Assembly: GCA_963971535.1 (NCBI GenBank)
Contig: OZ020585.1
Location: 21,999,958 to 22,063,957 of the forward strand
Origin: Notolepis coatsorum
Taxonomy: Eukaryota; Chordata; Actinopteri; Aulopiformes; Paralepididae
DNA length: 64,000 nt
Direction: 5' to 3'
Positions within the stretch are counted from its first letter, which is position 1. Every line of letters begins with the position of its first letter. Under the pieces are notes generated by a model. The model had not been told where the DNA came from. It did no database searches and saw nothing but the letters and a program-made list of their open reading frames with translations. The translations under genes were made by a program, and so were the position numbers. Of the stretch, positions 24,128 through 43,173 are shown in pieces.

Positions 24128-24345
24128 TATGTATGTATGTATAGCCTATGTATGTATGTATGTATGTATGTATGTATGTATGTATGTATGTATGTATGTA
24201 TGTATGTATGTATGTACTATGTGTATGTATGTATGTATGTATGTATGTATGTATGTATGTATGTATGTATGTATGTATGTATGTATGTATGTATGTATGT
24301 ATGTATGTATGTATGTATGTATGTATGTATGTATGTACTATGTGT
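24128..24345. repeat. (ATGT)n tetranucleotide array
   Basis: About 50 ATGT units with three interruptions (TAGCC, ACTATG twice). The apparent MYVC-repeat frames on plus are artefacts. Confidence 0.95.
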
Positions 24346-25266
24346 ATGTACTGTGTGTGTGTACATATGTTATGTATATATGCCGCTGAGTCAGTCCTGT
24401 CCTGTCCTGCAGAGGCAAGCTGTGGTGGCTGATGACGCTGCCTTTTTTATTTTGTATTTATTTAATTAATTATTTTCCCTTTGTATGGCAATATGTATGT
24501 ATGTATGAACTGGATAACGTATACGCAAGCATGTTATGGACCTTATGGAAAAGGAAAGAAGAGAAAATAAAAATAAAAAACGAATAATAAATGTATAATA
24601 ATAAAAAAAAAAGCTGAACTATCCATTTAGGCTAATAATACAAATTATTTTGGCCATGGTACGCAGCCAGCCAGTGACTTACATAAAACTAAATTATAAT
24701 ATTATTATGCATCCACCGCCCCGCCCCCGTCTCTCTCCCTCTCTCTCTTTCTCTCCATCTCTCTCCCTCTCTCCCTGTCTCCCTCTCTCTCCCTCCTCTC
24801 CTCTTCCGTTCTGCTGTTATCTTTAGTAATTCAAGCCCTCTGCTGACCCACCGGTGGCTATTTTACTATTTTGGCTAAATCCAGCTCTGAGGTAACGACT
24901 CGAGTGACACCTTCTGTTTCCATGCTTCCCGTCGCTAGGCAACCTCAGCAATTATGCTACTGCCAAGGGTAGGCAGGAAGTAGCGCCATGCAGGCCCCCT
25001 GCCTCCGCTCGTCTTGGCTGTGATTAGTCAGCTGCTGGGGTTCGTCTGGGCCGACCAACCAATGACGAGGGCCGTTTGTACCATGCTGTGCATTCCACTC
25101 TACTCCACTCATTAAGTGGCCTCTATTCGCCGATGATGCTGGCAGGTTGGCTGTATGTCCATAATAGGCCTGTAACTCAGAATATAGTGAAAGACTCTGC
25201 TGCCCTCTATCGTTCCCTGATGGTCATTAATGAGAGATTGTTAGCTTCACTTCTCCACCTACCGGA

Positions 25267-25267
<1 letters not shown>
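24346..25267. other. no gene recognised
   Basis: CT-rich low-complexity sequence lies at 24728-24812. The GC-richer stretch 24880-25265 has one 91-codon frame without conserved content. I looked for splice-bounded conserved exons and found none. Confidence 0.4.
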
Positions 25268-25901
<634 letters not shown>

Positions 25902-25920
25902 GCATGCATCCACCTGCATC

Positions 25921-29490: not shown

Positions 29491-29495
29491 ATACA

Positions 29496-29853
29496 TGTTG
29501 GTGACAGGTATAGACAAGACGGTTTGTTATGGTCACGTCATTCACAAATGGGTCACGTGGTGTAGTAGTATGAGTAAAAGTCAGCTGTTCACCGGCGGGT
29601 TTCAGGTATTGAAATGATGAGGGAGTGAACGGGGAAGTCATACTTTGCTAACCGCACGTTACACAATATCCAATCAAGCTGTGATTTGCTTTTAATGACG
29701 TTACTATATCAACTGCTTTTAATCGCAATAAAGTAACCAAACGCAGTATCCTGGAGCAGTGATTTCATGACAATCGGCGCGTCTGGCAGGTAGAATTGTT
29801 TCCCCGGTTTAGTCTCTCGGTGACTCCATAAATGTTTGGATAGTCGCCATACA
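29496..29853 (+). repeat. 5' LTR of BEL element
   Basis: It starts TGTTGGTGACAGG and ends AGTCGCCATACA, 358 bp. It contains AATAAAG near 29729, a possible polyadenylation signal. Confidence 0.9.
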
Positions 29854-30314
29854 TTTGTTAGCAAAAGCGACACTGAACGAAGGATTGGATCCACGAAAGG
29901 TCCCGATAAGTCAGACATTATTGGACGGAGCAAAGGAGCAACGCGCGCATGTAAACAATGGGATGATCGCACGCACGCACAAAGGACCGGACCGATCCAG
30001 ACCAGCATACGTCAACGGATTTGCGGTAATGTAACCCGACCCGTTGCGCAGTGTGGACCCATGTTGGTTCGTTTGGAACAATTTTGAGCTGGTTCTACCT
30101 AACTAACTGTTATTATTATTATGCTGAAACACGCTGTGGATGTGTGTGCGCAGCCCGCCGGGCAAAACTTCTATCATGTGTGTGTGACAACAAACAATTG
30201 ACGTGCGCTGCACTGCTCTCTTGCCGTGGCTGACATATGTGGCGGGTTTTGCAAATGCGTTGAACGTTGGAATTGGATTCTCATGGCTTGTGATAACTTT
30301 CTTGTGCTTTCAAA

Positions 30315-33300
30315 ATGAGTGATTCAAATGTTGGGAAACAGGACAAAGAAAAGAGAAAAATAACTCTCACTGCAAAAGCTCTTGCAAACAAAGTCGAATC
30401 ACTCAAAAAGAAATGCAAAGGGAAAGTGGAGGAAATAAAACGTCTGATAACCTCTGTCAGAGAGCTCATGGAAAATGAGCAAAATGTTGCACTGGTTGAA
30501 GCACAACTTGACGTTTTGATGCAGGTGTCTGACAGTGCTGATGAACTTCATGGCTGTTTGGTGCCTCTTATTCCACTCGATGAACAGGAACGGCAAAATG
30601 ACTGGTTCTCAAAGGTCAATAAACATAAAGATGGGTTCATTAGCGATGTTAATGCCTGGTTTTCAGTAACCAAAGGAAACACACCTCAGTTAGAGGCTCA
30701 TAACAGGCCTACTGAAATACAGCAGCATGAGGTTGCAGAGGAGGAAAATGGAGAGCATGGGGGTGTGGGAAATGTGGAAGTGACGGGGCCTCAGTTGCAC
30801 AGTACTCGTTATGCTCAAGAGGATGTTCAACCAGGGGACAGCATATCCAACCATAGTAGCAAGAATTATGGTTCAAGATCTTCTAGATCAAAGGTTTCCT
30901 CTAATGCATCCACACGCCTCAGAGCCGAGGCCGACATGGCCGCCTTAATGGCTCGGCAAGAGTTGCTTGAACAAAAGCATGCTCTTGAGGACCAGGAAGC
31001 TCAAATAAAGAAACAAGCAGACATAGCAAGGCATGCTCTACAGGACCAGGAAGCTCACATAAAGAAACAAAAGGAACAACTTCAGTTGAAAGTGGACATA
31101 GCTGCATCGGCAGCAAGGCTAAATATTCTGAGAACCTCTGGGTCAGGGGTGTGGAGTGCTGCTTCTCGTAAATCGGATGGAATGGAATCCTACTTTGAAA
31201 AGGGCCTCAACATTAATGCAGAGACATTTGTATCACACAAGGATGGAAGAGGACAACCTGCATATGTTGGAGGCACACGACCAAAGCAAAGGCAATCTGA
31301 CGGAGCCAAATACCTCCAGAAGCCCTCAGCACTCACACAGACCCAGACTGTGATCTCAAACGCTACAGAGTACCCAGCGCTCACACCGAGACAGAGCACG
31401 GTCCCAAAGACTACATGGCCTCCATTGTCTGTGCATAGAGACATACAACCTGTTTCCAGGAACAACAGCAGTGAGCAGAACAACATAATGTCTATTATGC
31501 AAAAACAAAACGACCTCACTTCCATGTTGGTGCATCAGCAATGCATTGCTTCACTGCCTAAAAGAGACATCCAACCATTTGAAGGTGACCCTCTGCAGTA
31601 CCATGGCTTTATACAGTCCTTTGAACAGACTATAGAAAGGAGGACTGACAATGCTGTTGATTGCCTGCACTATTTGGATCAATACACCAGGGGGCAGCCT
31701 AAACAACTAGTCAAAAGTTGTCAACATATGACTGATGGCACTGGATATGCTACGGCGAAGGCTTTACTCCAGGAACACTTTGGGAACGAGCATGTCATAG
31801 CATCCGCTTACATGGACAAAATCTTTGCATGGCCAGCTATTAAGTCGGAGGATGGGAAAGCCTTACAAACATACAGCCTATTCTTGCGCGGATGCTGCAA
31901 TGCCATGAAAGACGTACATAATCTATGTGACCTAAACACATCTGCAAACATGCTTGCTGTCATCAAGAAGTTGCCCTACAAGCTGAGGGACAAATGGCGA
32001 ACAGAGGCATGTAACATCCAGGAAGGACATCGCAAACGTGCTACGTTCACAGATATTGTGATTTTTATTGAGCGGGAAGCGAGAATCGCTACAGACCCTG
32101 TATTTGGAGACATACAAGACGCTCCAATGACGGGGGCTTTCAAGGAAAGTGGCAGAGCTAGACCTGTGCCTCGTCTTCAGGCTAGAGCGAGTAGTTTTGC
32201 CACAACGTTCTCCACAATTGAAAGGGATGCTCATTGGGAAAACAGAGAGGATGGATATGAGGAAACTTGCCTTTTCTGCAAAGAGGGTGGACACACACTG
32301 GAGTCATGTACTCTATTGGAGAGGAGAGCTCACAGTGAGAAGATGGAGTTCCTGAAGGAGAATGGAGTTTGCTTTGGATGCTTGTGCACTGGGCACATTA
32401 GCAGAGAGTGCAGGGAACGTCTGTTTTGCAGGACATGTGGCTCACGACACCCCAGCTTGCTTCACATCCACTCTAAGGAGAATGGAGATGCAGAGAAAGG
32501 CAGGAGCAACTCAGACAGAGCAGTGGACAGAACTCTAGTCGAGATCCATACCGGTGGCCTTACTGGGGCCGGTGATCAATATTGCAAGCTTGCCATCGTA
32601 CCAGTTAAGGTTAAATCAAGCACAGGTCAAAGGTCAGTGGAAACCTATGCCTTTCTAGACCCAGGGAGCTCAGCGTCCTTCTGCACAATGGGTCTGATGG
32701 ATAAACTGGGACTATCTGGGAGTAAAACAAGGATCCTTCTACATACCATGGGCCAAGAAAAGGTGGTTGACAGTTGCACTACATCTGACTTGGAAGTCGC
32801 TGGATTGGACAGTGACCGATACTGTAAAATACCAAAAATCTTTGCACAACATCAAATGCCTGTCAATCGAAGTAACATCCCACAACAGCAAGATCTGGAA
32901 AAATGGCCTCATCTGAAGCATGTTTATCTGCCACAGATAGATGCAGACGTGGAAATGTTGATTGGTCTGAACGTTCCCAGAGCTTTAGAACCACTGGAAG
33001 TCATCCGAAGTGTGAATGGAGGGCCATATGCAGTCAATACGATGCTTGGATGGACTGTAAATGGACCAGTTGGAGGAGACGACAGTGTCATGGCAGCGTT
33101 CGGAGCTAGTTCTGAAAGCTCCAGCAGCACCAATAAGATGGAGTATAAACGTAAAGCTCATCAGAAGGTGATCGACGAGGCCAAGCAGGAGTTGAAGACA
33201 CAGAGAGGAGAGAACACATGGCGTCTCCCAGAGCTCGACCAACGTCTTCATCAGATACAGCAGGAGACCATCTTCAAGACCAAGAAGAAGAAAAGGTCAA

Positions 33301-33959
33301 AAAAGATCAAAAAGGAGAAGAAGAGACAAGAGGAGGAGAAAGCCAAAGCAGAGGCCATCCAACAGGCTGGTCTGCATAAGCTGGAGTTGAACCCATACTG
33401 GAAAGATGGAGGGAGTGGTCTTCCCCCAGTGCATAAGACTGGTACTGCAGCACATAAAGCCTCAGTAGAGAATATTGGAGGTGTTGGTTGGTTGAGGAAG
33501 AGTTTGAAGAGGATGAAGGAGCAGGCGGAGAGAGAACAACGCAGCCTCAGTGACGTGGTGTCTCAGATATATGGATCCATGGAGAAGTTTCAGAATCAAC
33601 TTGCAGAAGCTGAGAGAGCAGCACATGGAGAAAGAGAGGAGAGGATGGCAAGAGGAGGAGGAAGAGAGGACAGAGAGAAGAGAATGGAGGAGGAGAGGAG
33701 AGGAGGATGGGATGGAGAGAAGAGGATGAGGAGGGACTCCATACAGTACTCGACGAAGTGGAATCAATTCTCAACAGTAGACATCTCACATACCTGCCAC
33801 AATTACAGGAACGACAGAACAAAGATCAAGCAGAACTTCATCCCCGGTGACATAGTGCTCAATAATGGACGATTCCGTACCACGGAATTCGTGGATCATT
33901 GGGAGGATTACAGAGACGATGCCAGACGAGATCGGACTTGTGCGACAGGTCTGGATTAA
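30315..33959 (+). CDS. BEL gag-protease ORF fused to a CWF19L2-like segment (1214 codons)
   Basis: Domains in order (residues approximate): a lysine-rich coiled-coil N terminus (1-120) and a helical, glutamine-rich region (200-270). Next comes a DUF1759-type gag core (about 410-600; FEGDPLQYHGFIQSFEQ, LLQEHFGN), then two zinc knuckles (CLFCKEGGHTLESC and CFGCLCTGHISREC, about 650-705). A retropepsin-like domain follows (AFLDPGSSASFC, about 780; LIGLNVPRALEP, about 880). Residues about 943-1115 do not belong to BEL. GENTWRLPELDQRL, a KTKKKKRSKK basic run, ELNPYWKDGGSGLPP and WLRKSLKRMKEQAEREQR match the host splicing factor CWF19L2 as I remember it (GEDTWMLPDVNERI, ELNPYWKDGGTGLPP, SWLRKSYQRMKEQAEKQ). 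The joined segment has no introns, which points to capture through RNA. Confidence 0.85.
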   Translation: MSDSNVGKQDKEKRKITLTAKALANKVESLKKKCKGKVEEIKRLITSVRELMENEQNVALVEAQLDVLMQVSDSADELHGCLVPLIPLDEQERQNDWFSKVNKHKDGFISDVNAWFSVTKGNTPQLEAHNRPTEIQQHEVAEEENGEHGGVGNVEVTGPQLHSTRYAQEDVQPGDSISNHSSKNYGSRSSRSKVSSNASTRLRAEADMAALMARQELLEQKHALEDQEAQIKKQADIARHALQDQEAHIKKQKEQLQLKVDIAASAARLNILRTSGSGVWSAASRKSDGMESYFEKGLNINAETFVSHKDGRGQPAYVGGTRPKQRQSDGAKYLQKPSALTQTQTVISNATEYPALTPRQSTVPKTTWPPLSVHRDIQPVSRNNSSEQNNIMSIMQKQNDLTSMLVHQQCIASLPKRDIQPFEGDPLQYHGFIQSFEQTIERRTDNAVDCLHYLDQYTRGQPKQLVKSCQHMTDGTGYATAKALLQEHFGNEHVIASAYMDKIFAWPAIKSEDGKALQTYSLFLRGCCNAMKDVHNLCDLNTSANMLAVIKKLPYKLRDKWRTEACNIQEGHRKRATFTDIVIFIEREARIATDPVFGDIQDAPMTGAFKESGRARPVPRLQARASSFATTFSTIERDAHWENREDGYEETCLFCKEGGHTLESCTLLERRAHSEKMEFLKENGVCFGCLCTGHISRECRERLFCRTCGSRHPSLLHIHSKENGDAEKGRSNSDRAVDRTLVEIHTGGLTGAGDQYCKLAIVPVKVKSSTGQRSVETYAFLDPGSSASFCTMGLMDKLGLSGSKTRILLHTMGQEKVVDSCTTSDLEVAGLDSDRYCKIPKIFAQHQMPVNRSNIPQQQDLEKWPHLKHVYLPQIDADVEMLIGLNVPRALEPLEVIRSVNGGPYAVNTMLGWTVNGPVGGDDSVMAAFGASSESSSSTNKMEYKRKAHQKVIDEAKQELKTQRGENTWRLPELDQRLHQIQQETIFKTKKKKRSKKIKKEKKRQEEEKAKAEAIQQAGLHKLELNPYWKDGGSGLPPVHKTGTAAHKASVENIGGVGWLRKSLKRMKEQAEREQRSLSDVVSQIYGSMEKFQNQLAEAERAAHGEREERMARGGGREDREKRMEEERRGGWDGEKRMRRDSIQYSTKWNQFSTVDISHTCHNYRNDRTKIKQNFIPGDIVLNNGRFRTTEFVDHWEDYRDDARRDRTCATGLD

Positions 33960-34285
33960 GACGCGGACCTGCAGTTTTCTCTATAGACCTGTGACAAAGA
34001 TTTGCCTTATTCAGGAGTCAACAGTCATGAAGGCTTTGTTTCTTTTCATGATTTTGGATTATTTTGACTTTTTTGTGACTTTGACGTTTGAATTGACTTG
34101 ACTTTGGGGGGGGGGGGTTCGATTTAAGAAGAGTATCAAGACCTTATGAACTATGAACTCCTTGCGCACAAAAAATCGAAAGACAAAAAAAATTTAACGA
34201 AATTTGTATTGTGGTGTTTTATATTAATTGAAGTGTTAGTAATTATTACTGTGAAATGAGATTATGTAATAATTAGGGGCCGGGT

Positions 34286-34643
34286 TGTTGGTGACAGGTA
34301 TAGACAAGACGGGTTGTTATGGTCACGTCATTCACAAATGGGTCACGTGGTGTAGTAGTATGAGTAAAAGTCAGCTGTTCACCGGCGGGTTTCAGGTATT
34401 GAAATGATGAGGGAGTGAACGGGGAAGTCATACTTTGCTAACCGCACGTTACACAATATCCAATCAAGCTGTGATTTGCTTTTAATGACGTTACTATATC
34501 AACTGCTTTTAATCGCAATAAAGTAACCAAACGCAGTATCCTGGAGCAGTGATTTCATGACAATCGGCGCGTCTGGCAGGTAGAATTGTTTCCCCGGTTT
34601 AGTCTCTCGGTGACTCCATAAATGTTTGGATAGTCGCCATACA
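34286..34643 (+). repeat. 3' LTR of BEL element
   Basis: It has the same length and the same ends as the 5' LTR, with one difference noted by eye near position 34311. It is followed directly by the target duplicate ATACA. Confidence 0.9.
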
Positions 34644-34648
34644 ATACA

Positions 34649-35425: not shown

Positions 35426-35956
35426 TTCTGTGCCGTTAGAGGCTCTGCTTGGCATCACACTGCACAATGGGAGGCCAAGCGGAGCCGCTGGCTGACAAAT
35501 ACACCCCGCTGACAGCCCCCCAAAACCATCAGAACAGGGAGGGCCGAGCCCCCCCGACCCCCCCTAATGGAGGGTATCCCCCCTATTAGGGGCTTCACGG
35601 GAAGGCGACGGACCCGACCGTGCGAAGAGGCACTCAAGCAACTCAACGCACAGGGTGAGCAGACCGTGGCTTGACCCCACGACTACACACACGCACAACC
35701 CGCATGCCACCCGGGAACGAACGGAGGAACAACCTCGTTACCGCCCCCAGAATCACGGGGTCAAGGGCAAACCCAACCCCGTGGCAAGGCCGTAGCAGCG
35801 GAGCGCGAAGGAAGACCCAGACCCACCAAAAGGACTGGACTCCCTGGAATGGGGGCCCGGAGAAGTCCATGATGCCAGCATCAAGACCCCACCAGGTGGG
35901 CACGTAGTGCCCCGCCCCCCACATCGCCAGCGTATTCGGACAAAGGCCCCCCAGTT

Positions 35957-36070
35957 ACTGCACCTGGTAATCCCAGGCGGTATCCCAACCAAGTACTAAC
36001 CAGGCCAGAACCTGCTTAGCTACCGAGATCGGACGAGATCGGGCGTGTTCAGGTCGGTATGGCCGTAAGC
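35957..36070 (-). rRNA. 5S rRNA-like sequence, copy 1 (probable pseudogene)
   Basis: Read on minus it follows vertebrate 5S rRNA nearly end to end: GAACACGCCCGATCTCGTCC, GATCTCGGTAGCTAAGCAGG, TTAGTACTTGG, then a C-box with two changes (GGATACCGCCTGGGATTACC). The box A region AGCTAAGCAGG is intact. A small number of substitutions against the canonical sequence and its place inside a transposon-like unit suggest a pseudogene, but pol III activity cannot be excluded. Confidence 0.7.
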
Positions 36071-36736
36071 CGAGCGGGCCCCGTCCCCCCAATAGTACAC
36101 CGCCTGGCACACTGACCCTGCAGAACAGGCAGTCAGCATGGCCGTAAGCACACAAAAAAGGTTAACCAACGGAAGCAGGCAGCGCACCGGGGAAAAACCA
36201 GGCAACAGGCTGTTAACCCTAGCCTGGAGACTGCGGACGAGACAGGCGCCAGAGGGGACAGCTGAACACAGCTGCCCCGGCGGAAGGGGCGTATGCTGGC
36301 GTTGTTGCATGACCAAGCCTCCATTTAAAAACCCCCACCCAGAGGGGTCGAGGCAGAGAAGGCTGACACGATTGGCAGACGTCATGAACGTGCAGGGGCA
36401 CCCTCAACCGGTGAACCCGGGAGTTGACACTGCTCCAACACACCAGGGAATCAACCACCTCGGTGTTACCCAATGCGGTGGTTGTTCCTATAACCCCTCA
36501 AGAAAAAACTCCAAAACACACCTGCGGGTATACACCGGCTATACCGCAGTACAAGTGTTTCAGTTTTCAAAAAAGGGTTAACCCAGGCCTACGGGTCGCA
36601 AACATCACTTCGGACCGGGCCTGGCGGTACGGGAAGCACAGGGTCACCAGAGGAGGTCAAAAAACCACCCCCACAGGCCCCTCTTCGCCATGCGTGAGAG
36701 AGGAGCGAAAAATAATAGAGAACCAGCCCCTAAGCA

Positions 36737-36850
36737 CACCGTACTTGGTATTCCCAGGCGGTCTCCCAACCAAGTACTAACCAGGACCAACCTGTGTAGC
36801 GGCCGAGATCCGACGAGATCGAGCGTGTACAGAATGGCATGGCTGTAAGC
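36737..36850 (-). rRNA. 5S rRNA-like sequence, copy 2 (probable pseudogene)
   Basis: On minus it keeps GGGAGACCGCCTGGGAATAC (C-box exact), TGGTTAGTACTTGG and CTCGATCTCGTCGGATCTCG. The A-box region is changed (GGCCGCTACACAGG). It starts 780 bp from copy 1. Flanking sequence of the two copies is not obviously repeated. Confidence 0.7.
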
Positions 36851-41391: not shown

Positions 41392-42313
41392 TTAACACTT
41401 TGAGCGCCACGCCGTGTTTTCCTTTTTACCCCCTTGAATGCCACGGTCCACTCCCAATGTTAACGTTAATAGCGCCTAATCTATGTTTTAAATGTGTCTA
41501 ATCTGCCCGTCGCTTATCAAAGAATCATTTTCCAGTCAGTGTTGTCAAGGCAGATTGGTTTTTTATCGCTTCATTTCCGTTTGAGAGCATTTTGAAAAGC
41601 ACCCGTGTTCAGGTGAAAAACAACCTATTCTATGATAATCGCCTTTTACTGGAATATTCCAGAACGTTGATATTTGTCTGCCTATTTATGAATCGTTTTC
41701 AAATAAACGCTAGATGATCAATAGTATACGTGCACGCACGCACGTTCGAGCCGCGTGCTGATAATAGCTGCTTTCATTTCCTCATGGATTTTACAGTGAA
41801 ACAGCTAGAGCACATATCACAAAAAAGCTTATATCTCCTCGAAAACGAGTCTGATTATCCTAACACTGATAACATAGATTCCTTACCTGACATCAGATGG
41901 TATCCAAATGGTATATTTCAATTCCTGATCACCATTCGAAAAAATCGATAAGTATATTGATCCAACGTGTGTACAGTATAACCCATGCTCGCCGCGGCTC
42001 AGAGGATCCAGAATGAACTCTGGTAACTCCGGCTGCATCAGTGGACTGGAAAATGTGGACTGGAATATTTTTTTTTTCCCATCCATTTTCATTGAGTCCA
42101 TTCCAAAAGGGTGATTTACCATCTGGGAGACGATATGGGGCGCTTTTTTCACATCTGATCGCCGGCGGCCCCTGGATTTCCAACGGTAATGCAATATGAT
42201 TTCAGATCGCTAAAAAAAAAAAAAAAAAAAAATCAGAGAAAAGCCGTGACGTGGCTTTCAACGTAACTATCGTAAACACGAGATTAGCCGTGAGTGGCGC
42301 TCAAAGTGTTAAG
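41392..42313. mobile_element. TTAA-ended element D, copy 1
   Basis: TTAACACTTTGAGCGCCAC at the left and its complement (GTGGCGCTCAAAGTGTTAA) at the right form 19-bp ends including the TTAA. The interior shares CCTATTTATGAATCGTTTTC, AAATAAACGCTAGAT, CATAGATTCCTTACCT and TATTGATCCAACGT with D copy 2. It has no coding capacity. Poly-A (42212-42230) lies near the right end. Confidence 0.65.
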
Positions 42314-42829: not shown

Positions 42830-43173
42830 CAGAGCTATTTCTATATTCTATATTATGGCTATGTGTCTAATACGTCCGTCGCTTATCAATGACTTACTTG
42901 AAGTCAACATGTACGAAACGGATAGTTTTTTCATCGGTACATTTCCGTTTTATACCGTTTCTGAAAAACGGAAGTTTTTGGAAATGTCTAGGGGAAAAAA
43001 AGATTCCGTGATAATAGCTCTTTACTGGAATACACAAAACATGTTGTAATTTTTCGGCCTATTTATGAATCGTTTTCAAATAAACGCTAGATTATCGATA
43101 GTATATGTGTACTTATGCACGCTAGAGAAGCGGGCTGAAAATCGATTATCTATTTCCTGGTCAGCGCTAACAT

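What the first reader, a model, noticed from the sequence alone, without database searches (positions are those of the whole stretch)
33141..33660. Host splicing-factor (CWF19L2-like) cDNA captured inside a BEL/Pao retrotransposon ORF
Residues about 943-1115 of the 1214-codon ORF are unlike any BEL protein but match CWF19L2, the lariat-debranching-associated spliceosome factor. The shared words are GENTWRLPELDQRL, a lysine run, ELNPYWKDGGSGLPP, WLRKSLKRMKEQAEREQR and YGSMEKFQNQLAEAE. Against the human protein (from memory) the segment skips a stretch between the lysine run and ELNPYW. It is intronless and in frame with gag-protease. Transduction of host exons by an LTR element is well known for retroviruses but rarely described for BEL/Pao. 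A splicing-factor passenger is, to my knowledge, undescribed.
Basis: partly seen in the sequence, partly recalled or inferred. Interest (0 to 1): 0.92.

Follow-up and report, generated by a model that had tools for sequence, protein, structure and literature searches.

The report
Retrotransposon carrying a captured splicing gene
A fish jumping gene of the BEL/Pao type swallowed part of the messenger RNA of the host's splicing-factor gene cwf19l2 in place of its own copying enzymes, and has since spread with it to more than a hundred places in the genome.

Summary
Window 29496-34643 is an LTR element (358-bp LTRs, 1 difference, 5-bp target duplication). Its 1214-codon ORF is BEL/Pao gag-protease fused in frame to host cwf19l2, from about 10 nt before the host start codon (33079-33087) into exon 8 (33724-33731). 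The host gene lies on another contig; its exons, spread over about 79 kb, are joined without introns, so a spliced mRNA was captured. It replaces reverse transcriptase, RNase H and most of integrase. The junction occurs at 123 places in this genome, control 0: no assembly artefact. Of 15 copies with complete ends, 14 have matching 5-bp duplications, all different, so the fusion itself transposed, presumably with enzymes of autonomous relatives still present. On internal branches of the copy tree the captured piece shows excess synonymous change and no stops, unlike internal branches for the non-coding leader; a cruder comparison was not significant. The lariat-binding half is absent. Host-mRNA capture by LTR elements is known; for BEL/Pao my searches found no report. 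What the domain does for the element is inference.

The parts
29491..29495 (.). target-site duplication, left copy (ATACA)
29496..29853 (+). 5' LTR, 358 bp, TG...CA
   Evidence: 1 mismatch to the 3' LTR
29854..30314 (+). leader between 5' LTR and gag
   Evidence: non-coding control
30315..33087 (+). BEL/Pao gag and protease part of the fusion ORF; CCHC knuckles at residues 652-665 and 686-699
   Evidence: PF03564; 86% identical to P0121, a full gag-pol, over residues 400-925
33079..33087 (+). 5' junction gag-protease | cwf19l2 5'UTR; CAGTG shared by the sister element and host exon 1
   Evidence: 123 genomic places
33079..33731 (+). captured host cwf19l2 cDNA: end of 5'UTR, ATG at 33090, exons 1, 2, part of 3, end of 5, 6, 7 and part of 8
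33186..33187 (+). place of a 27-nt gap in host exon 2, between AGGAGT repeats
   Evidence: shared by the 12 copies shown
33324..33325 (+). place of the gap from inside host exon 3 to inside exon 5 (exon 4 absent); exact point ambiguous in repeats
   Evidence: shared by the 12 copies shown
33724..33731 (+). 3' junction cwf19l2 exon 8 | integrase; GGA to GGATGAGG shared
33732..33959 (+). integrase remnant, read out of frame by the fusion ORF to its stop; about 178 nt deleted inside it relative to the sister element
34275..34285 (+). polypurine-tract-like stretch before the 3' LTR, same core as in the sister element
34286..34643 (+). 3' LTR, 358 bp
34644..34648 (.). target-site duplication, right copy (ATACA)

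Best explanation
A BEL/Pao retrotransposon captured a spliced host cwf19l2 mRNA during reverse transcription. Template switching joined integrase RNA to cwf19l2 exon 8 and, at the other end, cwf19l2 5'UTR to protease, replacing the rest of pol. The result encodes a Gag-protease-CWF19L2(N-terminal) fusion and keeps LTRs, leader and a polypurine tract. Being without polymerase and a whole integrase, it spreads with enzymes supplied by autonomous relatives, as defective transducing retroviruses do. Shown: capture of spliced mRNA, shared junctions and gaps in the copies examined, many transposed copies, loss of pol, presence of a close autonomous family. Inferred: template switching as the mechanism, which family supplies the enzymes, and that the fused basic N-terminal domain is kept because it serves the element (for example by taking Gag to the nucleus or to spliceosomal sites). 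The confidence given is for capture and spread; for the kept-for-its-protein part I would say 0.5.
For: Introns absent at five host exon borders, exons spread over about 79 kb of C1, while the window lies on C6. Host gene single and separate: all 9 matches of the C-terminal query lie in one locus. Short shared words at both junctions. Junction at 123 places, control 0. The 12 copies displayed share both junctions and both gaps. 14 of 15 copies with complete LTR ends have matching 5-bp duplications, all 14 different; LTR pairs differ at 15 of 6413 positions over 18 of 21 copies. Sister family: protease 93%, LTR 82%, the same first 17 LTR bases and polypurine core, 43 junction-equivalent places, open frames up to 2102 aa. 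Captured piece on internal branches: 23 nonsynonymous, 17 synonymous, 0 stop; expected 8.6-9.4 synonymous; P 0.002-0.009 over variants of the test. The two wrong frames, and the leader on internal branches, show no such excess.
Against: The 5' microhomology is only 5 nt plus partial matches, and exon 8 is repetitive, so switch points are ambiguous. The sister's LTR is only 82% identical; no autonomous element with this LTR was proved. Copies analysed are 29 of 40 scored, out of 620 first-look candidates. Nine of 29 have a stop in the captured frame and 4 more shift frame before the 3' junction. A cruder shared-versus-single comparison was not significant (Fisher P 0.06-0.12) and one stop was shared by two or more copies there. 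Controls with few changes scatter: leader terminal ratios 0.46-3.46, tail internal 0.59-6.45. Tests are not corrected for number.
Confidence: 0.85

Rival explanations
1. The captured piece is a pure passenger: the element spreads because it keeps gag and the cis signals, and cwf19l2 sequence only fills the place of pol. (This rivals only the last, inferred part of the best explanation.)
For: Nine of 29 copies have a stop in the captured frame; terminal branches do not depart from neutral; of 30 amino-acid differences between the window copy and the host gene, the host residue is the commoner one in 60 teleost proteins in 18, the captured one in 10, ties 2; the shared-versus-single comparison was not significant.
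Against: Internal branches: 17 synonymous against about 9 expected, no stops; the non-coding leader gives internal ratios near 1 in its three frames.
Confidence: 0.4
2. The captured stretch is kept for its nucleotide sequence: near-identity to an essential germline gene makes small-RNA silencing of the element costly to the host.
For: Longest exact run with the host cDNA is 56-125 nt in each of 29 copies, 92 nt in the window copy; CWF19L2 is highly expressed in mouse germ cells and essential for male fertility (PMC11336944: title and start of abstract in a listing, passages).
Against: No small-RNA data; the selection seen is of the synonymous-excess kind, which points to protein; recent copies would share runs with the host anyway.
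Confidence: 0.08
3. The junction is an assembly artefact.
For: None found.
Against: 123 places with the junction, distinct target duplications, several lineages of copies.
Confidence: 0.01
4. The cwf19l2 retrocopy was made by a LINE and the BEL element was later joined to it at DNA level.
For: LINE-made retrocopies are common in vertebrates (recalled).
Against: No poly(A) stretch at the 3' junction, the piece ends in the middle of the mRNA, junctions inside protease and integrase share short words with the host, and pol is missing exactly between them. A search for other cwf19l2 retrocopies with exon 5 did not complete by the server, so an independent retrocopy is not excluded.
Confidence: 0.04

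Closest known systems
Crocodilian ERVs with captured KIT-ligand and nectin3 mRNA (PMC4299795, passages read)
   Same: Host mRNA inside an LTR element, amplified in the germline, captured ORFs reported under purifying selection; nectin3 replaced the element's env.
   Different: Retroviruses, not BEL/Pao; separate ORF rather than a C-terminal extension of gag-protease; cell-surface or signalling proteins, not a splicing factor.
Acute transforming retroviruses with gag-onc fusions (recalled)
   Same: Gag-host fusion, pol lost, helper-dependent, template switching to a host mRNA.
   Different: Infectious exogenous viruses; host gene is a growth regulator; here a genomic retrotransposon family.
Maize Bs1 and other plant LTR elements with captured genes (PMC3726574, passages; the Bs1 paper is not held, so its details are recalled)
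   Same: LTR retrotransposon carrying host gene sequence, in Bs1 as a chimeric gene.
   Different: Plant elements of other superfamilies.
Anakin BEL-Pao elements with chuvirus glycoprotein (PMC7642597, passages read)
   Same: BEL/Pao element that acquired a foreign gene and amplified.
   Different: Viral envelope-like gene, 13 of them in elements with all domains; not host mRNA replacing pol.
CWF19L2
   Same: Captured piece is its N-terminal part; 472 matches, human chain E=1.6e-32.
   Different: CwfJ domains and lariat clamp absent.

Membership tests
BEL/Pao LTR retrotransposon | gag-protease related to BEL/Pao polyproteins | tested here: met
   86% identical over residues 400-925 to P0121, which carries PF05380, PF00078, PF03564, PF17921, PF18701; PF03564 in the ORF
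BEL/Pao LTR retrotransposon | LTRs with TG..CA ends and short target duplication | tested here: met
BEL/Pao LTR retrotransposon | own reverse transcriptase, RNase H and integrase | tested here: not met
   absent between protease and the integrase remnant, where cwf19l2 stands. So: a defective derivative, not an autonomous member
BEL/Pao LTR retrotransposon | tRNA primer binding site after the 5' LTR | not tested
   no TGG directly after the LTR in the sequence; no tRNA comparison was made
Host-gene-transducing LTR element (works like a defective transducing retrovirus) | spliced host exons inside the element | tested here: met
Host-gene-transducing LTR element (works like a defective transducing retrovirus) | fusion transposed as a unit | tested here: met
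Host-gene-transducing LTR element (works like a defective transducing retrovirus) | mobilised by a helper in trans | not testable with these tools
   inferred from lack of pol and presence of a sister family with open frames
CWF19L2 (functional protein) | CwfJ C-terminal domains binding the lariat junction | tested here: not met
   no Pfam match in the captured piece; human structure model covers residues 536-894 (PMC6461851 passage), captured piece aligns to human 43-103 and 161-284

The most novel reading that the evidence does not exclude
A BEL/Pao element has turned the N-terminal half of a spliceosome-disassembly factor into a working part of its Gag: the fused basic domain is under protein-level selection and directs Gag-protease particles or their RNA to the nucleus or to spliceosomal sites, while a related autonomous family supplies the enzymes. 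It would be a natural helper-dependent system in which the defective, host-gene-carrying partner (123 junction places) outnumbers its closest autonomous relative found here (43 places; the two patterns differ in length, so the ratio is rough).
Probability: 0.4. Interest if true: 0.85.

Novelty: new variant of a known kind. Interest (0 to 1): 0.74.

Why it matters
Host-mRNA capture is documented for retroviruses and host-gene capture for plant LTR elements. Here donor gene, captured product, a close autonomous relative and many copies of different age sit in one assembled genome, so the steps (template switching, loss of pol, spread, selection on the captured domain) can be followed base by base. 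If the selection signal holds in the full set of copies, it shows that BEL/Pao elements too can recruit host protein domains, and raises the testable question of a conflict with a splicing gene that is essential in the mouse germline.

Tried and rejected
Rejected: assembly artefact; unprocessed genomic duplicate of cwf19l2 (introns absent); exon skipping as the cause of the internal gap (breakpoints lie inside exons 3 and 5); recent re-copying of exons 6-8 from the host, suggested by low dS there (0.066 against 0.277), because change on the stem did not differ significantly between the two halves (19 of 276 against 8 of 255 nt, P=0.07).

Weak or unresolved: shared-versus-single N/S in the first 24 copies (shared 10 N, 8 S, 1 stop; single 39 N, 11 S, 5 stops; Fisher P 0.06 with single stops counted as N, 0.12 without stops). 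An autonomous copy with the junction variant of our family: none among 43 sister places. A third, more distant autonomous copy (L049, L050) is only 66% alike in protease and integrase tail. An LTR pair 7.75 kb apart at C32:75507105-75514894 without a listed captured junction (the list is cut) could be an autonomous relative, but its sequence could not be fetched. The species was not identified; the best protein matches point to no close relative. A Pfam match to GCIP_C is below its cut-off and was ignored. A primer binding site was not evident by eye.
Full report
WHAT IS THERE. The window holds a complete LTR element at 29496-34643. The two LTRs are 358 bp, begin TG and end CA, and differ at one position; ATACA flanks both sides. 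One ORF of 1214 codons (30315-33959) fills most of it. Residues 400-925 are 86% identical to P0121, a 2056-aa BEL/Pao polyprotein from an unnamed public contig with reverse transcriptase and integrase domains; the ORF itself shows PF03564 and two CCHC knuckles. From 33079-33087 on the ORF leaves the BEL pattern and becomes cwf19l2.

THE CAPTURED PIECE. Alignment with 18 of those proteins shows that the likeness begins at the host start codon, MAAFGAS at 33090. The host gene was found in the same genome (G000, 3.42 Gb; the window is on C6): all 9 matches of a C-terminal query lie at C1:193.446-193.500 Mb, and exons 1-8 lie between C1:193.5158 and 193.5952 Mb, minus strand (I set the exon borders from the alignment and GT..AG signals, and the outer ends of exons 1 and 8 are cut arbitrarily). 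Captured sequence joins exons 1|2, 2|3, 5|6, 6|7 and 7|8 exactly where the introns are removed. Two stretches are missing: 27 nt in exon 2 between short repeats, and one stretch from inside exon 3 to inside exon 5, so exon 4 is lost and this is not exon skipping. Through LAEAERA the window copy differs from the host at dN 0.061 and dS 0.159 over 177 codons; protease differs from the sister element at dN 0.042 and dS 0.148 over 160 codons. Capture and the split from the sister family are therefore of similar age, if rates were alike (inference).

JUNCTIONS. The sister element reads GGAGGAGATGGCAGTGACAATTCTGAG where ours reads GGAGGAGACGACAGTGTCATGG, and host exon 1 reads ACATTTACGACAGTGTCATGG: CAGTG is common to all. 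At the other end the sister reads AGTCTGGATGAGGAAGGACTCC, ours AAGAGGATGAGGAGGGACTCC, host exon 8 GAAGAGGAGAGG or, in another repeat, GAGAGGATGAGGGG: GGA to GGATGAGG is shared. Such short shared words are what template switching during reverse transcription leaves; the mechanism is inferred. After the 3' junction the ORF runs out of frame through an integrase remnant to a stop at 33957-33959; about 178 nt are missing inside that remnant relative to the sister.

A FAMILY, NOT ONE COPY. A DNA search with 33141-33740 gave 620 first-look candidates; the 40 scored are all full length or within a base or so of it, 93-100% identical. A 42-letter pattern over the 5' junction, up to 3 mismatches, occurs 123 times (53 forward, 70 reverse), its backward control 0 times. 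A 38-letter LTR pattern occurs 146 times, control 0. I fetched the 20 next most similar copies with flanks and the captured piece of 8 of the more divergent ones; 11 of the 40 scored were not looked at beyond the search rows. Of 21 copies including the window, 18 had two measurable LTRs: 15 differences in 6413 positions, 10 pairs without a difference. Fifteen had complete outer ends, and 14 of these have identical 5-bp flanks, all 14 different from one another; in the fifteenth (L028) the flanks differ by one base. The fusion was thus inserted many times, recently; this sample of 21 leans to the young because it was taken by likeness. The 12 copies displayed, the 8 divergent ones among them, share both junctions and both gaps, so I infer one capture. 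An uninterrupted frame from gag start through the captured piece is present in 9 of 21 copies, and 6 of these end at the same stop. In 20 of 29 copies there is no stop in the captured host frame, though 4 of these 20 shift frame before the 3' junction.

WHO SUPPLIES THE ENZYMES. A reverse-transcriptase query found 23,264 first-look candidates, of which 121 were scored; 37 are 86-91% identical to P0121, some in open frames of 2084-2102 aa. Pieces of two of them show protease 93%, LTR 82%, integrase tail 79-92% identical to ours; a third, from a more distant group, is 66% alike. In the sister the first 17 bases of the LTR and the core of the polypurine tract are the same as ours and the last LTR bases nearly so. 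Its junction-equivalent sequence occurs 43 times and none carries our variant. These elements could supply reverse transcriptase and integrase in trans; no direct proof was possible.

IS IT KEPT AS PROTEIN? On a tree of 29 copies plus host, over 531 nt, internal branches carry 23 nonsynonymous, 17 synonymous and 0 nonsense changes; terminal branches 28, 13 and 7; the stem to the host 17, 10 and 0. Neutral simulation with the spectrum of single changes expects 8.6 synonymous on internal branches (P=0.0018); with a simpler spectrum 9.4 (P=0.0065; 0.0059 without the host; 0.0044 on repetition); with another tree 16 synonymous are counted, P=0.0094. Terminal branches do not depart (P=0.22 and 0.34). 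Read in the two wrong frames, the internal changes show no synonymous excess (P=0.996 and 0.50). The non-coding leader, on a tree of 20 copies, gives internal N:S ratios of 1.09, 1.22 and 0.95 of expectation in its three frames, but its terminal ratios scatter (3.46, 0.57, 0.46 on about 20 changes each); the tail after the stop has only 8-9 internal changes per frame and scatters too (0.59-6.45). Gag, known to be coding, gives 0.57 on internal and 0.60 on terminal branches (P=0.004 and 0.003); protease has too few changes (internal 3 N, 4 S; terminal 12 N, 3 S). Against this, the cruder shared-versus-single comparison was not significant, with one shared stop, P values are not corrected for several tests, and parsimony on a shallow tree is rough. 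I take it as fair, not strong, evidence that the captured domain was translated and kept while copies were being made.

WHAT IT MIGHT DO. The piece (216 residues when counted to 33737, the last few of which may be integrase-derived; net charge +15, run KKKKR) is the N-terminal part of CWF19L2. The human structure models residues 536-894, which clamp the lariat (PMC6461851, passages); the captured part aligns to human 43-103 and 161-284, so the lariat-binding half is absent. A basic nuclear-targeting or RNA-binding tail on Gag-protease is the likeliest use (inference). CWF19L2 is highly expressed in mouse male germ cells, nuclear and probably in nuclear speckles (PMC11336944, passages), which fits an mRNA available in the germline. 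Each of 29 copies has an exact run of 56-125 nt in common with host cwf19l2 cDNA, so small RNAs against the element might also hit that gene; untested.

KNOWN OR NEW. Crocodilian endogenous retroviruses captured KIT-ligand and nectin3 mRNAs, with purifying selection reported (PMC4299795, passages). LTR elements of rice, sorghum and maize carry hundreds of captured genes (PMC3726574, passages). BEL/Pao elements of mosquitoes took up a chuvirus glycoprotein (PMC7642597, passages); a survey of BEL/Pao elements mentions only env capture in the passages I saw (PMC3118150). Searches for BEL/Pao with captured host genes and for CWF19L2 with retrotransposon listed no report of this (open-licence papers only, capped listings). 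I file it as a new variant of a known kind: host-mRNA transduction with a gag fusion, presumably helper-dependent, in BEL/Pao.

Noticed in passing
window 35952-36070 and 36733-36850, minus strand: Two 5S rRNA matches (88.8 and 63 bits, gathering 38) about 780 bp apart, 1.3 kb downstream of the element; possibly a piece of a 5S array or 5S-derived repeats.
   Followed up: no
window 24131-25911: Long microsatellites (TATG)n, (GT)n and (AC)n, the last two forming a large inverted repeat with arms of about 200 nt.
   Followed up: no
window 41666-41765 and 43043-43142: Two diverged copies (83%) of a 100-nt repeat that is not a simple repeat.
   Followed up: no
window 29854-30314 compared with L025-L041, L043, L044: Leader subfamilies: some copies keep the window's leader at 99-100%, others 94-95%, others 81-82%, while captured piece and protease stay 98-100%; suggests recombination between subfamilies.
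   Followed up: partly
   Followed up: partly
G000:C21:22414352-22424287: Two LTR pattern matches of our family lie within 10 kb of a sister-type junction and a broken reverse transcriptase of the sister family: perhaps a nested or mixed element.
   Followed up: no
G000, whole genome: 23,264 first-look candidates for a BEL/Pao reverse transcriptase query (121 scored), with several groups of near-identical scores and open frames of about 2100 aa: suggests recent BEL/Pao expansion in this 3.4-Gb genome.
   Followed up: no
window 29854-29900: No TGG directly after the 5' LTR, so the usual tRNA primer binding site is not evident.
   Followed up: no
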